Source: Candidatus Latescibacterota bacterium
GTDB lineage: Bacteria; Latescibacterota; UBA2968
Length of the DNA: 64,000 nucleotides
Reading direction: 5' to 3'
Assembly (NCBI GenBank): GCA_022821275.1
Contig: JAJEDY010000094.1
Location: forward strand, 1-64,000
The notes below the pieces were generated by a model, which worked only from the letters and a program-made list of their open reading frames with translations, ran no database searches and had not been told where the DNA came from. Positions 46,990-63,829 of the stretch are shown here, one piece after another; the first letter of the stretch is position 1, and each line of letters starts with the position of its first letter. Made by a program: the position numbers and the translations under genes.

Positions 46990-48045
46990 TCAACGCAGTT
47001 CATCCCATTTGAATTCCAGGCGGATGAGATCCGGGGGTGATTCTCGGCGGTGGAGGGATTTATAGGTTATGACGTTGAAAGATACTTTTCCGGCGCGTGT
47101 TATAAAATAAGGCGTCGCATAGTACCCGTCGGGTACAACCGCGCCTTCGTAGTTGTCCAGTATGGCATAGGAGAGGATTTCGAGTGATTCGGGATCGAAT
47201 TTGAATAGACACAGTTTCATGCCGCGTATCGATTCTATGGCATTTCGACCAATAAAGTAGTAACCACCATCTCGCTCGAAAAGTCGCGGTCTGCCTATCT
47301 GAGCGCGTATGAAGTTGTAGGTCTGTGTCAGGTTCACTTCTCTGATTGTGCGGAACGATCTATCGGTAACATGCATTCGCTGGATGCCGTCCAGACCTCG
47401 TGTGTTGAAGATGTATCCGTCTTCATATCGCAGGAAGGATGTTTCGTTGATGGGTGCGTTGCCAAAGGCTTTTGTGAGGTTAGCTACAAACTGCCAACTT
47501 TTCCCATTGTCATCGGATCGAATCACATCCACATTGGGACTGTTCTTTCGATAATGTCGGTAGGGCGTCAAGAGCATATAGGTCGTTTCGCCTTCTGTTA
47601 GAGATTCAAACGCATAGACATATTCCGTGCCGTTGATGGGGCCGAGTTTTTCGCCGCCTTCAAAGTGCACGCCATTATCCGAAGACCGATATGCGAGTAG
47701 CCCGAATTTGTCTTTTGAATTTGGGAAATGAGGATCTACGTACAGACCAATATCGCCATTGGCAAAGCGGACAAATTCTCCGTTCTGGATCGTAAATCCA
47801 TCCAGGTGTGCGACAATTTTCCGATCTGAAATTGTCCCCGTGGTGGGGTTGTAGCGAAACATCTCCCAGTCGGCGGCTGGTTCTGTGTTGTGCCGGGTGC
47901 CGCGTTTGTAGGCGATCAGGACATTGTGTTCGTCCAGAAACAAGAGGTGTGGGGCTTTCACATAGGGCAGTGTTTTTTGTTCTGCTGCCCGTATCAGGAT
48001 TTCCTGGGTTTTGTAATGAGGTAGAATGGGAGTATGAGGGCTCAT
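46990..48045 (-). CDS. BNR-repeat/sialidase-fold-like protein
   Basis: VIRSDDNGKSWQFVANL and AYRSSDNGVHFEGGEKL Asp-box-like motifs. Confidence 0.65.
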   Translation of the reverse strand: MSPHTPILPHYKTQEILIRAAEQKTLPYVKAPHLLFLDEHNVLIAYKRGTRHNTEPAADWEMFRYNPTTGTISDRKIVAHLDGFTIQNGEFVRFANGDIGLYVDPHFPNSKDKFGLLAYRSSDNGVHFEGGEKLGPINGTEYVYAFESLTEGETTYMLLTPYRHYRKNSPNVDVIRSDDNGKSWQFVANLTKAFGNAPINETSFLRYEDGYIFNTRGLDGIQRMHVTDRSFRTIREVNLTQTYNFIRAQIGRPRLFERDGGYYFIGRNAIESIRGMKLCLFKFDPESLEILSYAILDNYEGAVVPDGYYATPYFITRAGKVSFNVITYKSLHRRESPPDLIRLEFKWDELR

Positions 48046-48073: not shown

Positions 48074-48112
48074 AAAAAGGCCACCGGGGACGCGAAATCG
48101 GTGACCTTTTTT
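48074..48112. terminator. Hairpin terminator
   Basis: AAAAAGGCCACCG ggga cgcgaaat CGGTGACCTTTTTT: 8-bp stem with one mismatch, A-run/T-run flanks. Confidence 0.6.
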
Positions 48113-48276
48113 GTTTTATCATCGCATTTTTTGCGCTTCCGTATATATGCTTGCAGAACCGCATTCATTCCTTTTTTCAAACGACGAGACGCTTTGTCAA
48201 TCATTTTTGGCAGAAAGTGAGCGACAAATACCTTTGTTGCTAATAAAATCGTCACAACAGATGTTGTCTTTAATAA

Positions 48277-49059
48277 TTAGCAGGTTGTCTCACGTTCAGC
48301 GGTAGCCCGCTCTGATGCGGCGATGGGTTGGTACTGCTTTAGGTCTTGCATTGGACTGAACCCCTTTGGTAGCTGACCGCTAAGGTGGACTAATAGGCGG
48401 TGGCTCAACGGCGCATCGAGATTCACCTGAGCTACAGCGATGTTGATGTCGGTTACCATCCAGGTATTTTCTTGGTATATGCAATCAACGAGGTATTGGG
48501 GCAGCCAGCCAAGCGGGTTATAGTTCTGTGTATAGACCAGGAGGCTGTGCGTAGTAGAAGGATTGTTAAGCTCAAATGCCAGCCGAAGATTGTCCCCAAC
48601 TTCTAATTTTTCGGAAGCTTCAATGCCATGCTGATTGGTGTGCCGAAGTCCGTGCAAAATACACTGCGTCTGAAACCTACCATCGGAGTCAGGTTCAATT
48701 GCTGGAAAAATCTCGAAATTGTCGATCTGGCTATGGCCGCCAGACACGGAAAGTTCGGCAATCTCATCCCAGTTGGCTACATCGATACCAAGTTGACGTA
48801 GATATTCAGGGCGGTCCGTGCGGCTCCGATTCATGACTCGATATCGGAATGTCGAGAATAGCTCGTCAGATAGATAGTGCTTGTACAGTTGCGGAAATCC
48901 GGGGATCTCTCGGAATTTAGCCAATTTCTTAGCTTGCTCGGCTCCCCGAACATAAGCAAACTCGTAGCCACCATGTTCGGTTTCATGCTGAACGAGCCGA
49001 CCAATAGGGAACCACAGGCGGCTTTGTAGGTTTTGCCAGGCGAGATAGAGAGTTGTCAT
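48277..49059 (-). CDS. HIRAN-domain protein with HipA_N-like N-terminal region
   Basis: RLWFPIGRLVQHETEHGGYEFAYVRGAEQAKK...REIPGFPQLYKHYLSDELF (HipA_N-like) and LEVGDNLRLAFELNNPSTTHSLLVYTQNYNPLGWLPQYLV (HIRAN-like). Start overlaps upstream stop (ATGA). Confidence 0.65.
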   Translation of the reverse strand: MTTLYLAWQNLQSRLWFPIGRLVQHETEHGGYEFAYVRGAEQAKKLAKFREIPGFPQLYKHYLSDELFSTFRYRVMNRSRTDRPEYLRQLGIDVANWDEIAELSVSGGHSQIDNFEIFPAIEPDSDGRFQTQCILHGLRHTNQHGIEASEKLEVGDNLRLAFELNNPSTTHSLLVYTQNYNPLGWLPQYLVDCIYQENTWMVTDINIAVAQVNLDAPLSHRLLVHLSGQLPKGFSPMQDLKQYQPIAASERATAERETTC

Positions 49060-52000
49060 CGAATACTCCTCAACAATTCGGTTTTGCTGGTCACGACCAC
49101 TTCGGTAGCAAAATCTTTGGCCGTGTCAGACATAAACTCGGGCGGTACCTTGTCCATAACTGTTCTTATATCATCATCGGATACATTGCTGATTTTGTTC
49201 AATGTCCTTTGAGTGAAATCAGATTTCCACCGACACAATAATTTTGCGAGACGAAGGGGTGAGATGTAATTAAGTTTACTTCTAACAAATACACGCCCTC
49301 TTCCCCTTTGCAAATAGTTGAGCACCCTTCCCGAATCCAAGATATAACGGCGTCTTTCATCGGTCAGTTCTCGACCCAATGAGGAGGCGTGGTCGTATGA
49401 CGGTGCTATTTCCCATTGGTCATAACCAGGACCATAAACCCGCGCAAGCATCCAGTTCTCGTGGTGTCTATCCGTGTTGCCGATGAGACCGTCTAACGCT
49501 GCTAAGGCGTTCATGTAAGCCAGGATCAGATCGCGTGTGCGGTATTTTCCGAATGTTGCCTTGTCTTCCCGTTGGACTATGGGAAATGTGCTCAGGATGT
49601 ACTCGGCGTCTTCCCGCGACAGACCGTAGAGGTGGAAGTAGAGTGCGTCGAGGCGAGCGCGCAGGTGGCGGCGTTCTTCTTCATCCCAGATAAAGGGTGA
49701 GCCGTCGTAGCCGAGGTCGCGGGCGAAGGGTGCCATGTCGTGCGCGGTGTACGTGAGACGGAGCACATGGTCACGGATGATGTCGCGAGCGGTTTTGCTC
49801 CCGAACTGGCGATCGTAGTCGGCAGGTGTGATGACAGGAAGTTGCTCGACGATATACCAAGTGAGGTGGGTTGCTTGGACCTTCTGACGAGCAACGTAAT
49901 CAAAACAGAAACTGTTAAGATTGGATAGCAGACAAGCCGCGTTCTTGCCATTGAAGTCGCCTTCGACCGGAACAAGGACTGGTAATGTGTGTCCACATCC
50001 AACTTGTGGAATGATAGCGGCGATCATGGTGCGAACATTGGTTGGCGCCGTAATGTCTTTAAACGCCAAAAGCCAGTGTAAACTCTGGACAATATTGCTC
50101 TCCTGCTGACTGATCCAATACCGAGGACAAGGAGAGAAAGTCTGATCGCGGTATTCTTCGTCGAGTGTCTTGTCCGGCTGTCCCGATCGGTTCAGATTTT
50201 CAGGGTTGACGACCACGCTTGCCGCACGATGGTCAAATGCCTGTACCATCTTCCCCTCATACAACGGCAAATACAATTCTTCTCCCCGTTTCCAGCGGTT
50301 GCCCTTAACGGGGTAGAAACCTTCGGCTTCGAGTTGATCGGAGGTGCGGAAAAGGTGGGAGTCAGATGTCATATTAAACAATCCCTGCATAAATCGCACC
50401 GGCCAGGCCTTGCATTCTTCACCGCCTGAGCGATCCACCAGCACTGAATGTTGTTCATAGATGCGACGGGTGATCTCAGCGTCGCGGCGACTGCGGAACA
50501 CGGGGGCCGTGCCGGTATTCGGATTTACACGAGCGAAGTCATCTGGTGTCAATGGAAAGCAGCGATCCTCGTCATCTATGGTTTTGGTGTCGTGCAAGAA
50601 GAAGGCACATTCGGTCTGGTCGAACAGTCGCTCCTCGCCACCAAATATAAGGGCGCAGAATTTGAACGAAGCGTGGATATCCTTGAAGAAAATTTTCTTG
50701 TTTTCAAAGTCGAACAGGCTATCTACCCGTCCGCTTGTGGAAACAGATTTGAAGAAGCGGGCCGCGGTTTTGTCGGCGTAGATGCCCGATGGCGTGAGCA
50801 GGCCGACAAAACCATCCGGCTTAATCAGGTTCATTGCATGCTCGACGAACAGCGAGTAAAGATTTATTCGACCTCCGCTCAGAAGAGGATATTTGTTAAA
50901 TGAACGTACGAACATGCGAATCTCAGCAGAGCGTTCCTTCGCCATTTCATACTCTAAGGCGAGTTTGTCGCCTGCCTCTTTTTTTTCTTTAATCAATGCC
51001 TTTCGCTTTGCTCCAGTCGCCGCATGGGATATCTTTTCATCACGGTTTGCGAACCATTCTACCTCTGGCTGTTCAATTTGGTCCCACGGTGGATTGCCAA
51101 TGATCGCGTCAAAACCGCCTTGCGGGCGGATATTTGTCCACTGATGCCAGACCCCTGGGAAAGCTACCTCCCAGTGCAGGAAGCTTTCTTGGTCGGCAAT
51201 AGCTCGTGCCTCGTACCACAGATTGGCGAATTGCGACCAGGTGGTAGTATCGGAATCGGGCGGAGCGTCGCCCAGGTGATTCGGGCCTCGAGACAGCAGC
51301 TTGTACGCGTCCTCTATATACCGCCCGAGCGTCGTGACCAGTGGCCCTTCAAATATGGCGAGTTCTCTCTTCTTCATCCCTGCCGTCAGATAGCGATAGC
51401 CGCAGAGGAAGTCGAGAAGATCGCGGAGGTCTGCGGTTGTGTCCTCTACCCCATGGAATAGCAGAGCTGATTCTTGCACTTCGGCTATGTCAGCATCGGA
51501 TTTCTCTTCAATGAGTTGCATGCTGTCCGTGGCCTTCTCGGCACCTGCAACGGCAGAACCGGCAAAAAGTCCTCCACCTAACTCTCGCAAGTCCCGAAGT
51601 GCATCTGACACGCTGAGTCCGATCAGCGAATCCCCACAGCGCAGGTGGTGGTCAAGGAAAGACAGCGGTGCGCCCACGGTGAAGCTGTGAAGCCACAGCG
51701 ACACCTTGGCGAGTTCTACGGTTAGAGGATTTTTATCGACTCCATATATGCAGCGTTTAAGCACCATACGGCGAATGATGGCCTGATCGGTAAGCTGAGT
51801 CTCATCCAGAACCCAGTCCGATTCTTTAGCTCGTCGAATGATCTCGCTGCGAATCGTCTCTACACGTTTTACGAGCGGTGAAACGTAGTCACCATTGAGC
51901 CAGTCCGGGACTGTGGGGACGTACTCGATTAACTCGGCGATGTAGTCAGATAAGAAATCTACAGCGGTGACCAGGAAGTGTCCACTTCCCATCGCCGGGT

Positions 52001-53501
52001 CCAGTACCTTCAGATTTAGAACTGCTTCGGCCGGATCGAGTTTTTGCAATTCTGCTTTTCGTTCGTCCTTAGGGCGGCGGATGCTCTTGAGTGCGGCGGC
52101 TTTGTCTTCGAAGGCTTTGAGACGCTCTTCTGCCAGTGGCTTCAAGGTGCGATCAACGATCAGATCGACAAGTTCTTGCAAGGTATAGAAACTGCCGCTG
52201 TCCTTGCGGGCATAGGGATTGAGGCGGATGATGATCTCACCATCTTCGCGCACAGGCTCGTGCTCCAGCAGGCGTTCGTAGATGGAGCCGAGTTGCTGCG
52301 CGGACATATCGCGGTAATTGACAAATCGATGTGTTCCATGCGGGTCTTGGACATGGCTCAGGCTATAAATGATGGGTGCGATTTTCGAGTCGGGCAGGCG
52401 CACCTCCTCCAACATTGGAGCGGCTTGAGATGCGAATAGTCCACCGTTGTAGGGCGGTAGGCCAATGGACGGATCACCTTCGTCAATAATTCTGCAAAGA
52501 TTGACGAGGCGGTCGTAGTAGTTGGAAGCTCTGGCGGAGAAAGTGTCTTTTTGCTCTGTCCTGTTTGCGATATCGTCCCGCACTTTTCGCAAGCCGTAGT
52601 CGTCGTAACGCGAGTCGTTGACAGGCAATAGGCCCCTGTCTTCGGCGTAAAGCACAAAGAGCAGCCTGTAGAGGAAGATTAAAGCAGCTTCCCGGATTTG
52701 TGAGAGATTTTCCGTTGTGGCATCCGCAAGTGCTGAGACGAGGTCGGGGAACACAAGTTTGAAGACTATGCTCGAAAGATCCTTCGCAACTTTTTCTTCG
52801 TATTGCTGACCTTCCGTAAGTGCAGTTTCGAGGAAGGTAGTTGTTGCACCCTGCTGAAGCGTGAAGGCATCACGGCGAAACAGCAGGTAAAAAATGCGCA
52901 GTTCGTCTTCGTTGCCGGATTCGATCAGTGCAGCCAGGTCAGCCTCGTAGTAGCCGCTGGCACGGGGACGAGCACGGTAGTCGTAGAGTCGCCAGATTTC
53001 GCCGTTGGTGAGGATACCCCATCTAATTTGGCTCTCCGACTCGATATCGGCCGTTGAGAGGTATCTGAGAATTTGGCCGTGTGGCGAATTAGCCTGGACT
53101 TTGTCGGTTTTGTCACGGGAGTCGAGAGAAAGACCGAACCGCTTGCTTTCTTCAACTACTGTAGCGTACCGGAAACGATCACTGGCGTTGTGTTCCGCCG
53201 CAGCGTGTGCTTTGGATTCGGCATTGGTGAAAAGCAGGTGGTCGGGGATGTCCTCATTGCGGGCTGTCCCTTGCTGTGGCAGATAGTCCGCCCATCCGAG
53301 CAATTCCAGAACAGGGCGGATCATATCCTGCTCGGTGACGGATTCGTTGGGATTTTTGAAGCGGACAAATTTCTCGAATAGGTCAGAAATAGCGGTACTG
53401 AATGTGGTGAATGCCTCTGGCTGGTCAATTGAGGTTTTCCACTCGTCTGTGGCTTTTATGCCGTCAGTTAGAAAGTAATGGGTGAATAATTGTCCAGGCA
53501 T
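49056..53501 (-). CDS. Type IIG-like restriction-methylase (Eco57I-type) with C-terminal HipA-like kinase C-lobe segment
   Basis: 1481 aa; N-terminal PD-(D/E)xK-like IPDHLLF...YATVVEESKRF; motif I VLDPAMGSGHFLVTAV; motif IV IIGNPPWD; after RTRDLILAYMNALAA it continues LDGLIGNTDRHHENWML...WEIAPSYDHASSLGREL (HipA/CtkA-like catalytic loop and metal-binding Asp). Confidence 0.85.
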   Translation of the reverse strand: MPGQLFTHYFLTDGIKATDEWKTSIDQPEAFTTFSTAISDLFEKFVRFKNPNESVTEQDMIRPVLELLGWADYLPQQGTARNEDIPDHLLFTNAESKAHAAAEHNASDRFRYATVVEESKRFGLSLDSRDKTDKVQANSPHGQILRYLSTADIESESQIRWGILTNGEIWRLYDYRARPRASGYYEADLAALIESGNEDELRIFYLLFRRDAFTLQQGATTTFLETALTEGQQYEEKVAKDLSSIVFKLVFPDLVSALADATTENLSQIREAALIFLYRLLFVLYAEDRGLLPVNDSRYDDYGLRKVRDDIANRTEQKDTFSARASNYYDRLVNLCRIIDEGDPSIGLPPYNGGLFASQAAPMLEEVRLPDSKIAPIIYSLSHVQDPHGTHRFVNYRDMSAQQLGSIYERLLEHEPVREDGEIIIRLNPYARKDSGSFYTLQELVDLIVDRTLKPLAEERLKAFEDKAAALKSIRRPKDERKAELQKLDPAEAVLNLKVLDPAMGSGHFLVTAVDFLSDYIAELIEYVPTVPDWLNGDYVSPLVKRVETIRSEIIRRAKESDWVLDETQLTDQAIIRRMVLKRCIYGVDKNPLTVELAKVSLWLHSFTVGAPLSFLDHHLRCGDSLIGLSVSDALRDLRELGGGLFAGSAVAGAEKATDSMQLIEEKSDADIAEVQESALLFHGVEDTTADLRDLLDFLCGYRYLTAGMKKRELAIFEGPLVTTLGRYIEDAYKLLSRGPNHLGDAPPDSDTTTWSQFANLWYEARAIADQESFLHWEVAFPGVWHQWTNIRPQGGFDAIIGNPPWDQIEQPEVEWFANRDEKISHAATGAKRKALIKEKKEAGDKLALEYEMAKERSAEIRMFVRSFNKYPLLSGGRINLYSLFVEHAMNLIKPDGFVGLLTPSGIYADKTAARFFKSVSTSGRVDSLFDFENKKIFFKDIHASFKFCALIFGGEERLFDQTECAFFLHDTKTIDDEDRCFPLTPDDFARVNPNTGTAPVFRSRRDAEITRRIYEQHSVLVDRSGGEECKAWPVRFMQGLFNMTSDSHLFRTSDQLEAEGFYPVKGNRWKRGEELYLPLYEGKMVQAFDHRAASVVVNPENLNRSGQPDKTLDEEYRDQTFSPCPRYWISQQESNIVQSLHWLLAFKDITAPTNVRTMIAAIIPQVGCGHTLPVLVPVEGDFNGKNAACLLSNLNSFCFDYVARQKVQATHLTWYIVEQLPVITPADYDRQFGSKTARDIIRDHVLRLTYTAHDMAPFARDLGYDGSPFIWDEEERRHLRARLDALYFHLYGLSREDAEYILSTFPIVQREDKATFGKYRTRDLILAYMNALAALDGLIGNTDRHHENWMLARVYGPGYDQWEIAPSYDHASSLGRELTDERRRYILDSGRVLNYLQRGRGRVFVRSKLNYISPLRLAKLLCRWKSDFTQRTLNKISNVSDDDIRTVMDKVPPEFMSDTAKDFATEVVVTSKTELLRSIR

Positions 53502-53585
53502 GTCAATTTCTCAATAGATTGAGGGGTGACCCTATTGGGCAAATACGATACAGGTAGGATATCTATAGGATATCTATGCGAAAGC

Positions 53586-53618
53586 AAACAGGCACTTAAT
53601 GTACATAAGTGCCTGTTT
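53586..53618 (-). terminator. Hairpin terminator downstream of tRNA-Lys
   Basis: AAACAGGCACTTA ATGTACA TAAGTGCCTGTTT, 13-bp perfect stem. Confidence 0.7.
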
Positions 53619-53744: not shown

Positions 53745-54218
53745 TCAAGTCTCGCGTACATAAGTCTCGCTGCGTCCGCCGCTTTTTTTCAGGAGATAGA
53801 TTTCACTGATGACCATGTCGCGATCTACTGCTTTGCACATGTCGTAGATGGTCAATAGAGCGATGCTTACCGCGGTGAGGGCTTCCATTTCAACACCTGT
53901 GCGGTCGGGGACGCGCACTGTTGCACGCGCTGTAATGCTCGTGTTTTCGGTCTCAAAGTTGAGTTCAACGCCTGTAATGCCCAGCGGGTGGCACATTGGG
54001 ATGAGGTCAGAGGTGCGCTTGGCGGCCATGATGCCCGCAATGCGCGCTGTTTCCAGTACATTGCCTTTGGGTATATTTCCCCCGGTGATGAGTTGCAGGG
54101 TTTCGGGTTGCATTTCAATTTTGCCCGATGCGATCGCCTCGCGGTCTGTCACGTCTTTATCTGTGACATCCACCATTTTTACGGATCCCTGTTCGTCAAT
54201 ATGTGTCAATTTTGCCAT
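53745..54218 (-). CDS. moaC: Cyclic pyranopterin monophosphate synthase MoaC
   Basis: LIPMCHPLGITGVELNFE; GVEMEALTAVSIALLTIYDMCKAVDRDMVI. Confidence 0.96.
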   Translation of the reverse strand: MAKLTHIDEQGSVKMVDVTDKDVTDREAIASGKIEMQPETLQLITGGNIPKGNVLETARIAGIMAAKRTSDLIPMCHPLGITGVELNFETENTSITARATVRVPDRTGVEMEALTAVSIALLTIYDMCKAVDRDMVISEIYLLKKSGGRSETYVRET

Positions 54219-59725: not shown

Positions 59726-61858
59726 ATGCAAGATAGCCAGGTTAATCGCATCCCCAATTTTATCTGGGGCATTGCCGACGATGTGTTGCGCGATCTGTAC
59801 GTGCGGGGTAAGTACCGGGATATTATTCTGCCGATGACGGTGATTCGGCGGCTGGATGCGGCTCTTGAACCGACCAAGCAGACGGTTCTCGCTATGCGAG
59901 ATAGGCTCGATGCTGATGGCGTTGTCGAACAGGAAGCCGCGCTGAAGCAGGCTTCCGGGCACGCTTTTTACAATGCTTCGCCATTCACGTTGCGCGATCT
60001 TCGCGCCCGCGCCACCCGGCAGCAACTTCGGGCTGATTTTGAGGCGTACCTGGATGGGTTTTCGGCCAATGTGCAGGATATTTTGAAGAATTTCGAGTTT
60101 CGCAATCAGATTCCGCGTTTGTCCGATGCCGACGCGCTCGGTGCGTTGATTGAAAAATTTCTGTCGCCGGATATCAATTTAAGTCCTTATCCGGTGGAGA
60201 ACAGCGATGGTTCTGTGCGGTTTTCCGGTCTGGACAATCACGCTATGGGTACGATTTTCGAGGAATTGGTGCGGCGGTTTAACGAGGAGAATAACGAGGA
60301 GGCTGGCGAACACTGGACACCGCGCGATGCTGTCAAGCTGATGGCGAATCTCATTTTTCTCCCGGTGGCTGACGAGATTGAGTCGAGTACTTATTTGCTC
60401 TACGACGGTGCTTGCGGTACGGGTGGTATGCTGACTGTCGCAGAGGAGACGCTTCGGGAACTCGCCTATGAGCGTGGGAAGCAGGTTTCCACGCATCTTT
60501 ATGGACAGGAGATCAATGCCGAGACCTATGCTATTTGCAAGGCGGACTTGCTGCTGAAGGGTGAGGGGAGTGCGGCGGATAATATTGTCGGAGGTCCGGA
60601 GTATTCGACGCTTTCCAATGATGCTTTCCCATCCCACAGATTTGATTTTATGCTCAGCAATCCGCCTTACGGCAAGAGTTGGAAGAACGATCTGGCCCGG
60701 ATGGGAGGCAAGAGCGGCTTATCTGATCCGCGATTTCTTATCGCTCATGACGGCGACGCAGAGTATTCCCTGCTTACACGCTCCAGCGATGGGCAGATGC
60801 TGTTCCTCGCCAATATGCTTTCGAAGATGAAGCGCGATACCAGTCTGGGCAGTCGTATTGCCGAGGTCCATAATGGGAGTTCTCTGTTCACGGGTGATGC
60901 CGGGCAGGGAGAGAGCAATATCCGTCGCTGGATTATTGAGAACGACTATCTGGAGGCGATTGTCGCGCTGCCGCTCAATATGTTCTACAATACAGGTATT
61001 GCCACGTACATCTGGGTGCTGACCAATCGCAAGCCAGCGCACCGACGCGGCAAGGTGCAGCTTATTGACGCGAGTGAATGGTACAGTCCGTTGCGTAAGA
61101 ATTTGGGCGCAAAGAACTGCGAGTTGTCCAATGACGACATCCGCCGCATTTGCGACGCTTTTTTGGCGTTTGAGGAGACCGAGCAGTCGAAGATTTTTCC
61201 CAATAAGGCATTCGGCTACTATAAGGTGACGGTTGAAAGACCGCTGAGGCTTGCTGTCGATTTGTCGCCTGAGCAACGTGTGCGATTCCGGGACGCTTGC
61301 TGTGAAGTGGAGGAAGAGCCGCTCGCCGAGGTGGTTGATGGAGTGGCGGAGACTATCGGCAACGGTCCTCATCTCGATTTCAACTGTTTTATGGATGCGG
61401 TCGCCGCAGAGGCTTCTGAGCAGGGCGTCAAGCTGATCGCCAAACGGAAAAAGCTGTTGCAAACGTCGCTGGCATTTCGGGACGAAGCCGCCGAACCGGT
61501 GATTAAGAGGATCTACAAATTGGGCAATAGGGAGCCAGACCCGATTCGCGGTCTGGTAGAGGCGACTGTGAATGATCAGTGTGTTGTTGAATATGAGCCA
61601 GACAGTGAGTTGCGCGATACCGAACAGGTGCCCCTGCTTGAGGAGGGCGGTGTTGAGGGCTTCTTGCGCCGTGAGGTGCTGCCTTATGCCGCGGATGCAT
61701 GGTACGTTTCGACAAGTGTCAAAATCGGCTACGAGATCAGTTTTACCCGTCATTTCTACAAGCCACAACCCATGCGGTCACGAGAAGACATCCGCGCTGA
61801 TATAATGGCATTGGAGCGAGAGAGTGAGGGGGTGTTGGCGGAGATTATTGGGGAGTAA
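59726..61858 (+). CDS. hsdM: Type I restriction-modification DNA methyltransferase subunit HsdM
   Basis: ALIEKFLSPDINLSP; EHWTPRDAVKLMANLIF; YDGACGTGGML; FMLSNPPYGKSW. Confidence 0.95.
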   Translation: MQDSQVNRIPNFIWGIADDVLRDLYVRGKYRDIILPMTVIRRLDAALEPTKQTVLAMRDRLDADGVVEQEAALKQASGHAFYNASPFTLRDLRARATRQQLRADFEAYLDGFSANVQDILKNFEFRNQIPRLSDADALGALIEKFLSPDINLSPYPVENSDGSVRFSGLDNHAMGTIFEELVRRFNEENNEEAGEHWTPRDAVKLMANLIFLPVADEIESSTYLLYDGACGTGGMLTVAEETLRELAYERGKQVSTHLYGQEINAETYAICKADLLLKGEGSAADNIVGGPEYSTLSNDAFPSHRFDFMLSNPPYGKSWKNDLARMGGKSGLSDPRFLIAHDGDAEYSLLTRSSDGQMLFLANMLSKMKRDTSLGSRIAEVHNGSSLFTGDAGQGESNIRRWIIENDYLEAIVALPLNMFYNTGIATYIWVLTNRKPAHRRGKVQLIDASEWYSPLRKNLGAKNCELSNDDIRRICDAFLAFEETEQSKIFPNKAFGYYKVTVERPLRLAVDLSPEQRVRFRDACCEVEEEPLAEVVDGVAETIGNGPHLDFNCFMDAVAAEASEQGVKLIAKRKKLLQTSLAFRDEAAEPVIKRIYKLGNREPDPIRGLVEATVNDQCVVEYEPDSELRDTEQVPLLEEGGVEGFLRREVLPYAADAWYVSTSVKIGYEISFTRHFYKPQPMRSREDIRADIMALERESEGVLAEIIGE

Positions 61859-61950
61859 ATACCATACCAACCTTGAAGATATGAATAAAGTTGGCTATAC
61901 TAAAATGCAGCGTTGAATTGGACCTTTGCAAGCAATGTAATCCTGAGGCC

Positions 61951-62499
61951 ATGACAAAGAGAAATTTACACCGCGACGGCACCATCCGCCTGCCCGGTTA
62001 CGATTATTCGTGGGCGGGTGCGTATTTCGTAACCACCTGCACGTCTGGAAGGGCGAACCTGTTTGGCGAAATTGTGAAGAATGAAATGCGATTGAACGTA
62101 TATGGCCGAATGGTACAGGAGGTATGGAACGGGTTGCCCGGGCATTATCCACACGTTGTGTTGGATGCCTTTGTCATTATGCCCAATCATATACATGGCA
62201 TTGTGGTTTTGGCCGACGACGCGGGTTTGAATGATATATCCGTAGGCGCGGGTTTCAAACCCGCGCCTACTACAACGCCACCGCGGCATGGCCTTCCGGA
62301 AATCGTTCGGGCATTCAAAACGTTTTCCGCCCGACAAATCAATGAATCGCGCCACACCCCTGGTACCCCTGTGTGGCAACGCAATTATTATGAACATATC
62401 ATCCGCAATAAGGCCGCCTTAAACCGAATCCGTCAATACATCATGACCAACCCTGCCCACAGGAAAAAAGATCGTGAGAATCTGATACGGTATCGGTAA
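61951..62499 (+). mobile_element. REP-associated tyrosine transposase (RAYT, Y1 family)
   Basis: YSWAGAYFVTTCTSGRANLFGEI; VIMPNHIHGIVVL (HxH); TPVWQRNYYEHIIRN (catalytic Tyr region). Confidence 0.92.
62242..62270. repeat. REP-like perfect palindrome inside the RAYT ORF
   Basis: GTAGGCGCGGGTTT C AAACCCGCGCCTAC, translated in frame as VGAGFKPAPT. Confidence 0.9.
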
Positions 62500-62573
62500 G
62501 CGTAGGTTTCGAGTGGGGTACAACTGGCCGCCTCTCAGGCCAGTTCAACCCGCTACCATACCTTCGAAATGCT

Positions 62574-63829
62574 GTGGCGTTGCTTTTTGCCCGTTACGGA
62601 CCGGACCATCCCAATGCCGGTGTCCGTCTGTTTCGCGTCATTGGCACTGAGCGCTATACCGGTATCGAGCACAATGTTGAAGAACGCCCGCGTTGCGAAG
62701 GTAACTTGCCTGCGGTTATATCGGAAATTCGCACGGTTATCAGTAGTCTGCTGCGGCGCCCGATGCGGCTCGTGGGGAGTCGCTTTCAGGAATCTGCCGA
62801 ATATCCGGATTTCGCATGGCTGGAGGCGTTGCTTAATGCCATCGCGCACCGCGATTACAGGATTGAAGGCACCTGCATAGAGGTCTGGCTATTCGATGAC
62901 CGCATGGAAGTTGTCAGTCCAGGCGGTCTGGTCGGCAATTTGACCACAGAAGCGTTGCTCACGCTCAAGCGCGTTCATCACAGCCGCAATCCTCGGATTA
63001 TTCGGGTGCTTGTAGATCTCGGTCTCGCACGCGATCAGGGCGAGGGTATTCCGCGTATGTTCGCAGAGATGGAAGATGCTTTTTTGCCGAGGCCAGACAT
63101 AGATGCGACCAGCCGCAGCGTTACCGTCACGCTTCGGAATACGCTTACCTTAAATGCGATGGATCGAGAATTTATCTCGGCTCTCGGCGATCTTGAGCTT
63201 TCCCGCAATGAGTTTCGGACCTTGCTTTATACGTATCGCCACGGTCAGATAGACAATGCCAGGCTACGTGCTTTATCCGGCCTGGATACCTTAAATGCCA
63301 GTTATCTTTTGCGCGGCCTCCGCGACCGAGATTTGCTGGTGCTTCATTCTCATGGCCCCAACAGCTACTATACGCTGACTTCTGTTCTGACATCGAAAGT
63401 TGGGGTATATAGAGCAAAAGGTGAAAAACTCAGTGTGGATGGGGGGATATTCGCGAAGGACAAGAAGGGACACGAAGAAGGGGTAAGCTCGATGCGGATG
63501 AGGGGGAGTTCAGCGCGGATGGGAGGGAGCTTGGCACGGATGGGGGGGAGTTCGACACCGATGGGGGGGAGCTTCCCGATTATATCAGAGCACGTATTGC
63601 AAAACTTGGAAAGCGGCCGCGTCGTGTGCGTGTGCGCCCCATCATCCATTTAATATGCGATCAAGGGAAATGGGTAACTTCTGCGGAACTTGCCCGGTTT
63701 CTCAATATAGGGCAAAGCAAACTAACGGCGGGTTATATTACTCCGATGGTGCATAGCAGAGAACTTGAACCGCGCTTTCCAGACAAGCCGAATCATCCTC
63801 ACCAGGCCTACCGCGCCAGAGTGCCCTAA
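62574..63829 (+). pseudogene. AlbA_2/RecG-like ATP-binding protein, N-terminally truncated and apparently frameshifted near its C-terminus
   Basis: LEALLNAIAHRDYRIEGTCIEVWLFDDRMEVVSPGGLVGNLT...GLARDQGEGIPRMFAEM (HATPase_c_4-like). Expected C-terminus (LPDYIRARIAKLGKRPRRVRVRPIIHLICDQGKWVTSAELARFLNI...PDKPNHPHQAYRARVP) lies in another frame ending at 63829. Confidence 0.7.
63488..63571 (+). repeat. Four tandem 21-bp coding repeats
   Basis: Units encode LDADEGE-FSADGRE-LGTDGGE-FDTDGGE followed by LPD. Confidence 0.85.

What the first reader, a model, noticed from the sequence alone, without database searches (positions are those of the whole stretch)
49056..53501. Restriction-methylase fused to a HipA-like kinase catalytic C-lobe
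The type IIG-like protein reaches what looks like its natural C-terminus (LYGLSREDAEYILSTFPIVQREDKATFGKYRTRDLILAYMNALAA) and continues in frame into LDGLIGNTDRHHENWMLARVYGPGYDQWEIAPSYDHASSLGREL. That resembles the catalytic loop (D..H..N) and metal-binding Asp of HipA/CtkA-like kinases. The N-lobe/ATP-binding part is absent. This is either a new RM-kinase chimera or a deletion that joined two adjacent defence genes.
Basis: partly seen in the sequence, partly recalled or inferred. Interest (0 to 1): 0.85.

Follow-up and report, generated by a model that had tools for sequence, protein, structure and literature searches.

The report
Restriction enzyme fused to broken kinase
A DNA-cutting defence enzyme has, most likely through a single accidental deletion, swallowed the back half of a neighbouring toxin-like kinase gene; the kinase half lacks its ATP-binding front half and is probably dead, so this looks like gene decay in a fast-changing defence locus rather than a new kind of machine.

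Summary
ORF 49056-53501(-), 1481 aa, is a complete type IIG-like restriction-methylase (residues 1-1335) continuing in frame into the C-terminal ~146 residues of a HipA/CtkA-like kinase of PADLOC family PDC-M03A. The next gene, 48277-49059(-), is its full-length partner PDC-M03B (HIRAN domain). Together they match the hipIN toxin-antitoxin organisation of Gerdes et al. 2021. The junction is sharp: 'AYMNALAA|LDGLIGNTDRHHENW', between bases 49497 and 49496. All 11 full-length homologous methylases recovered in the phylum end 9 residues after this point. All 20 M03A kinases aligned carry the missing N-terminal half. The methylase and M03 genes are never neighbours elsewhere (11 RM loci, 23 M03 loci). 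A sister species keeps a decayed methylase with the native tail at the same locus. The best explanation is a ~0.6 kb (or larger) deletion in a defence/toxin-antitoxin hotspot beside moaC. It removed the methylase stop codon and the kinase's ATP-binding half, leaving a probably active restriction enzyme with a dead kinase tail and an orphan HIRAN protein. A selected chimera with a new function is possible but unsupported. An assembly join is unlikely but cannot be excluded without reads.

The parts
49497..53501 (-). Type IIG-like restriction-methylase part (residues 1-1335): PD-(D/E)xK nuclease motif (PDHLL 86.., EESKR 117..), N6-adenine methylase motif I DPAMGSG (501) and motif IV NPPW (803)
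   Evidence: Pfam Eco57I 3e-22, N6_Mtase, weak MmeI_N; PADLOC DrmMI 7e-89 and REase_MTase_IIG 2e-86; alignment with 11 full-length homologues; motif positions
49059..49496 (-). C-terminal 146 residues (1336-1481) of a PDC-M03A / HipI-like kinase: end of the helix before the catalytic loop, catalytic loop NTDRHHEN, metal-binding Asp, C-terminal helices
   Evidence: PADLOC PDC-M03A 1.3e-33; alignment with 20 intact kinases; CtkA aligned across the same segment; AlphaFold model of the intact relative matches CtkA, HipA and HipT
49496..49497 (-). Fusion junction: codon GCG (A1335, RM) | TTA (L1336, kinase)
   Evidence: RM relatives read ...NALAA|GDTETVVAV*, kinase relatives ...SYAI|LDGLIGNTDRHHENW
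48277..49059 (-). PDC-M03B / HipN-like partner protein (260 aa, HIRAN domain), start codon overlapping the fusion's stop (ATGA), GAGGAG ribosome-binding-like site just upstream
   Evidence: PADLOC PDC-M03B 4e-69; Pfam HIRAN in 8 of 9 homologues, best 9e-6; AlphaFold model matches HLTF HIRAN structures; start context
48080..53586 (.). Approximate extent of the variable locus between a conserved 351-aa gene of unknown family (46990-48045) and moaC (53745-54218)
   Evidence: Flanks 90-95% identical in most same-genus genomes; G011 and G013 have <1 kb there

Best explanation
A single deletion of roughly 0.6 kb or more removed the last 9 codons and stop of a type IIG-like restriction-methylase gene, any spacer, and the first ~187 codons of an adjacent HipI-like (PDC-M03A) kinase gene, and joined the two in frame. 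The product is most likely a working type IIG-like restriction-methylase with a non-catalytic kinase remnant as a tail. The remnant should not bind ATP because the Gly-rich loop, the Lys and the whole N-lobe are gone. The HIRAN-domain partner (PDC-M03B/HipN-like, the presumed antitoxin or DNA-end sensor) is now an orphan translated from the same message. Shown: the anatomy, the junction, the full-length RM part, the lost kinase half, the absence of fused relatives or of RM-M03 neighbours in what was searched, and the native RM tail at the same locus in a sister species. Inferred: deletion as the event, kinase inactivity, continued RM activity.
For: (1) RM homologues match only through residue 1337 and kinases only from about 1334; native RM tails are NALAAGDTETVVAV*. 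(2) RM part full length with all motifs, 97.6% of otherwise invariant columns kept. (3) Kinase part starts at residue 188-189 of 335 of the closest intact relative L040, and 24 columns invariant in all 20 intact kinases are lost with the N-terminal half. In the AlphaFold model of L040 the junction lies within helix 175-191, just before the catalytic loop, so all N-lobe strands are gone. (4) No M03 gene near any of 11 RM loci and no RM gene near any of 15 same-phylum or 8 other M03 loci. (5) Sister species G010 has, at the orthologous moaC locus, an RM remnant (84-91% DNA identity in the two main stretches) with the native tail and stop. (6) The locus is prone to such events: the G010 remnant is itself an in-frame chimera with an LRR-lipoprotein start, and this genome has two more internally deleted RM paralogues. 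(7) GC3 changes at the join, 0.60 (last 300 RM codons) to 0.48.
Against: The C-lobe and partner gene show no stop, frameshift or accelerated change (relative identity to kinase relatives equals that of intact pairs; 31 of 32 invariant residues kept). That fits a recent event but would also fit selection on the fused form. The deletion itself is not seen: no genome with the two genes intact side by side was found.
Confidence: 0.83

Rival explanations
1. A selected functional chimera: the kinase C-lobe serves as a docking or target-binding tail that links the HIRAN partner (DNA-end sensing) to the restriction enzyme.
For: Open frame, retained C-lobe residues and an intact partner gene with coupled ATGA start. 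The RM's last helix could replace the kinase helix that precedes the catalytic loop (inference).
Against: Only one copy found in 64 phylum genomes, a genome contigs pattern scan, 295 genomes of the class of L040, plasmids, phages and a viral contig scan. In HipBST the antitoxin HipS contacts the kinase around the Gly-rich loop and active site (PMC10627512), and that loop is deleted here.
Confidence: 0.06
2. Assembly artefact: the methylase and an M03 locus lie apart in the real genome and were joined by the assembler.
For: Reads are not available; the genome is a draft in 101 contigs.
Against: The junction lies inside a 107-kb contig. The 451-base junction region has only 72-78% identical partial matches elsewhere in the genome, and a 12-mer centred on the join occurs once in the window and, among the loci held, only in copies of this same place, so there is no evident shared k-mer to cause a join. 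The frame is kept.
Confidence: 0.08
3. The last ~150 residues are a normal type IIG target-recognition or helical tail.
For: None found.
Against: None of 11 full-length homologues has it; the segment matches a separate kinase family at 1e-33.
Confidence: 0.01

Closest known systems
Type IIG restriction-methylases (Eco57I/MmeI-like; PADLOC REase_MTase_IIG)
   Same: N-terminal PD-(D/E)xK-like motif, central N6-adenine methylase, full length, conserved with 11 phylum relatives
   Different: Native 9-residue end replaced by 146 residues of a kinase
PADLOC PDC-M03 (M03A kinase + M03B HIRAN protein) = probably hipIN of Gerdes et al. 2021 (PMC8262856)
   Same: Gene order kinase then HIRAN-domain partner; partner full length; catalytic-loop half of the kinase present
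   Different: Kinase lacks its first ~187 residues (of 335 in L040), hence the ATP-binding half, and its own start
CtkA of Helicobacter pylori / HipA / HipT
   Same: Fold of the intact relative (Foldseek E 2e-10 to CtkA, 1.4e-5 to HipA, 3e-5 to HipT) and catalytic motifs
   Different: The fusion retains only the part after the helix preceding the catalytic loop
PglX/DrmMI methylases of BREX and DISARM
   Same: Profile similarity of the methylase domain
   Different: All NCBIfam PglX scores far below cut-off; no DISARM or BREX genes at the locus

Membership tests
Type IIG restriction-modification enzyme | Nuclease motif, N6-adenine methylase motifs I and IV in one full-length chain | tested here: met
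   The nuclease motif is by motif plus weak MmeI_N match only
Type IIG restriction-modification enzyme | Cleaves and methylates DNA at one recognition site | not testable with these tools
   Needs an enzyme assay or methylation calls
HipA/CtkA-family Ser/Thr kinase | Catalytic loop and metal-binding Asp | tested here: met
   NTDRHHEN and DHASS aligned with 20 kinases
HipA/CtkA-family Ser/Thr kinase | N-lobe with Gly-rich loop and ATP-binding Lys | tested here: not met
   First ~187 residues absent; 24 invariant columns lost; N-lobe strands all upstream of the junction
PDC-M03 / hipIN module | Kinase followed by HIRAN-domain partner | tested here: met
   Gene order and PDC-M03B 4e-69; HIRAN by Pfam in 8 of 9 homologues and by fold
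PDC-M03 / hipIN module | Complete small kinase (279-321 aa for HipG, HipI, HipJ and HipM in PMC8262856) | tested here: not met
   Only 146 residues remain
PDC-M03 / hipIN module | HipS-like N-terminal domain in the partner | tested here: inconclusive
   N-terminal WFPVGRL motif, but no Pfam or fold match for that half
DISARM / BREX | Partner genes beside the methylase | tested here: not met
   Neighbours are moaC, moeA, ATP-sulfurylase, a sulfatase and a 351-aa gene without a Pfam match

The most novel reading that the evidence does not exclude
The kinase C-lobe tail is a functional docking module that couples a type IIG restriction enzyme to a HIRAN DNA-end-binding protein, making a new composite defence enzyme born from a deletion.
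Probability: 0.05. Interest if true: 0.6.

Novelty: new member of a known kind. Interest (0 to 1): 0.2.

Why it matters
If the ordinary reading is right, it is a clean example of how turnover at a defence hotspot makes in-frame chimeras that annotation pipelines may label as new domain architectures. It also adds a decayed hipIN/PDC-M03 module with an orphan HIRAN partner. If the unlikely functional reading were right, it would link restriction and HipA-like kinase modules in one chain, which I did not find described.

Tried and rejected
Normal type IIG tail: rejected. Widespread fusion family: searched 64 phylum genomes, a genome contigs pattern scan, 295 genomes of the class of L040, plasmids, phages and viral contigs; none found. 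DISARM/BREX membership from the DrmMI and PglX hits: rejected for lack of partner genes and sub-cut-off scores. Fast decay of the C-lobe after fusion: relative-identity test shows no acceleration, which does not separate a recent event from selection. A spanning-substring routine gave no usable value (it stopped at length 1); the fixed-length k-mer counts in the same call were used. PDC-M03 has no dedicated paper in the library, and a search for RM-HipA fusions gave nothing on point.

Full report
What is there. The minus-strand ORF at 49056-53501 encodes 1481 residues without interruption. Residues 1-1335 are a type IIG-like restriction-methylase. Pfam finds Eco57I (3e-22), N6_Mtase and weak MmeI domains. 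PADLOC finds DrmMI and REase_MTase_IIG models at 1e-86 or about that. Motifs are a PD-(D/E)xK pair (PDHLL at 86, EESKR at 117), DPAMGSG at 501 and NPPW at 803. Eleven full-length homologues from the same phylum align over the whole length at 49-77% identity. The fusion keeps 445 of 456 columns invariant in the others, within the range of the intact proteins (0.935-0.998).

The tail. Residues 1334-1478 match the second half (positions 150-300 of about 300) of PADLOC family PDC-M03A (1.3e-33) and weakly Pfam HipA_C. The best solved relative by sequence is CtkA. A model of the closest intact kinase (L040, SAR202 bin, 64% identical over this part; mean pLDDT 63, pTM 0.71, so moderate) matches CtkA at 2e-10, HipA at 1.4e-5 and HipT at 3e-5. 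The catalytic loop NTDRHHENW and the metal-binding DHASS are intact, and 31 of 32 columns invariant in 20 other M03A kinases are kept. What is missing is everything before about residue 188 of 335: all N-lobe strands, the Lys, the glycine-rich region, and most of the helix that precedes the catalytic loop. By established knowledge of HipA-family kinases, where the Gly-rich loop is required for ATP binding (PMC10627512), this piece should not be catalytic.

The partner. The next gene (48277-49059) overlaps the stop by ATGA, has GAGGAG upstream, and is a full-length PDC-M03B (4e-69). Its C-terminal half is a HIRAN domain by Pfam in 8 of 9 homologues and by fold (HLTF HIRAN, Foldseek probability 1.00 but E only 7e-3). 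A kinase followed by a HIRAN-domain putative antitoxin is the hipIN organisation proposed by Gerdes et al. 2021 (PMC8262856), who suggested that the HIRAN domain may sense phage DNA ends and lead to activation of the kinase. The HipS-like half could not be confirmed here.

The junction. Native RM tails read ...AYMNALAAGDTETVVAV*; native kinases read ...ELASYAILDGLIGNTDRHHENW. The fusion reads AYMNALAA|LDGLIGNTDRHHENW, with the join between bases 49497 and 49496. The RM codon expected next is Gly and the kinase codon expected before is Leu, Ile or Met, so there is little room for homology at the break (inference). GC3 drops from 0.60 in the last 300 RM codons to 0.48 in the tail.

Is it a conserved architecture? 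No. Hits to the junction piece in 64 phylum genomes fall into two classes, RM ends (query 1-34) and stand-alone kinases (query about 30-168). The two that run past residue 34 from the RM side do so through stop codons, and L034 is an RM with its own stop. The RM and M03 genes never lie near each other in 11 RM loci and 23 M03 loci. Plasmids, phages, viral contigs, a genome contigs pattern scan and 295 genomes of the class of L040 show no fused copy.

History of the locus. The genes either side (moaC; a 351-aa gene) are 90-95% identical in most same-genus genomes. G011 and G013 have under 1 kb between them; G005 has a BrnT/BrnA pair and a PIN-domain gene; G010 has DUF5131, PIN and other genes plus an RM remnant with 84-91% DNA identity and the native tail and stop. 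That remnant is itself joined in frame to the start of an LRR lipoprotein gene that is intact in G005. This genome carries two further internally deleted RM paralogues. The site therefore looks like a defence/toxin-antitoxin hotspot where deletions make chimeras. The M03 module here is closer to copies in SAR202/Chloroflexi, Vicinamibacteria and a gammaproteobacterial bin (49-64%) than to same-phylum copies (36-44%), which suggests horizontal arrival (inference).

Mechanism. Most likely the methylase gene lay upstream of the hipIN-like pair, and a deletion of about 0.6 kb or more (9 RM codons and stop plus ~187 kinase codons, plus any spacer) fused them in frame (a one-in-three chance). The RM probably still works, the kinase is dead, and the HIRAN partner is an orphan. 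The C-lobe shows no excess change, so the event is recent or the tail is constrained; selection cannot be excluded.

Artefact. The join lies inside a 107-kb contig. The region has no near-identical copy in the genome, and a 12-mer centred on the join was found nowhere else in the window or in loci from other places. A mis-join is therefore unlikely, but reads were not available.

Noticed in passing
L071:2308-2958 (-) (G010, same locus): A second, independent in-frame chimera: the start of an LRR-lipoprotein gene joined to RM residue ~1110, followed by a stop.
   Followed up: partly
G000:C84:78168-79582 and G000:C41:137-667: Two further RM paralogues in the same genome with large internal deletions (residues ~73-537 and ~1099-1248 missing).
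   Followed up: partly
Downstream of moaC in the genus (L071, L073, L074, L075): Hotspot of defence and toxin-antitoxin gene turnover: BrnT/BrnA, PIN-domain gene, DUF5131, RM remnants, or nearly empty.
   Followed up: partly
window 48277-49496 versus L040-L047: The M03 module is closest to copies in SAR202/Chloroflexi, Vicinamibacteria and a gammaproteobacterial bin, suggesting horizontal transfer.
   Followed up: partly
window 59726-63653: A type I HsdM methylase gene followed by an IS200-like transposase match and a RecG-like HATPase_c_4 protein.
   Followed up: no
L041 (M03A) and L045 (M03A): Two of the eight closest M03A relatives also look interrupted: one by an in-frame TAG, the other without a recognisable N-terminal part in frame. 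Loss of this kinase may be common.
   Followed up: partly
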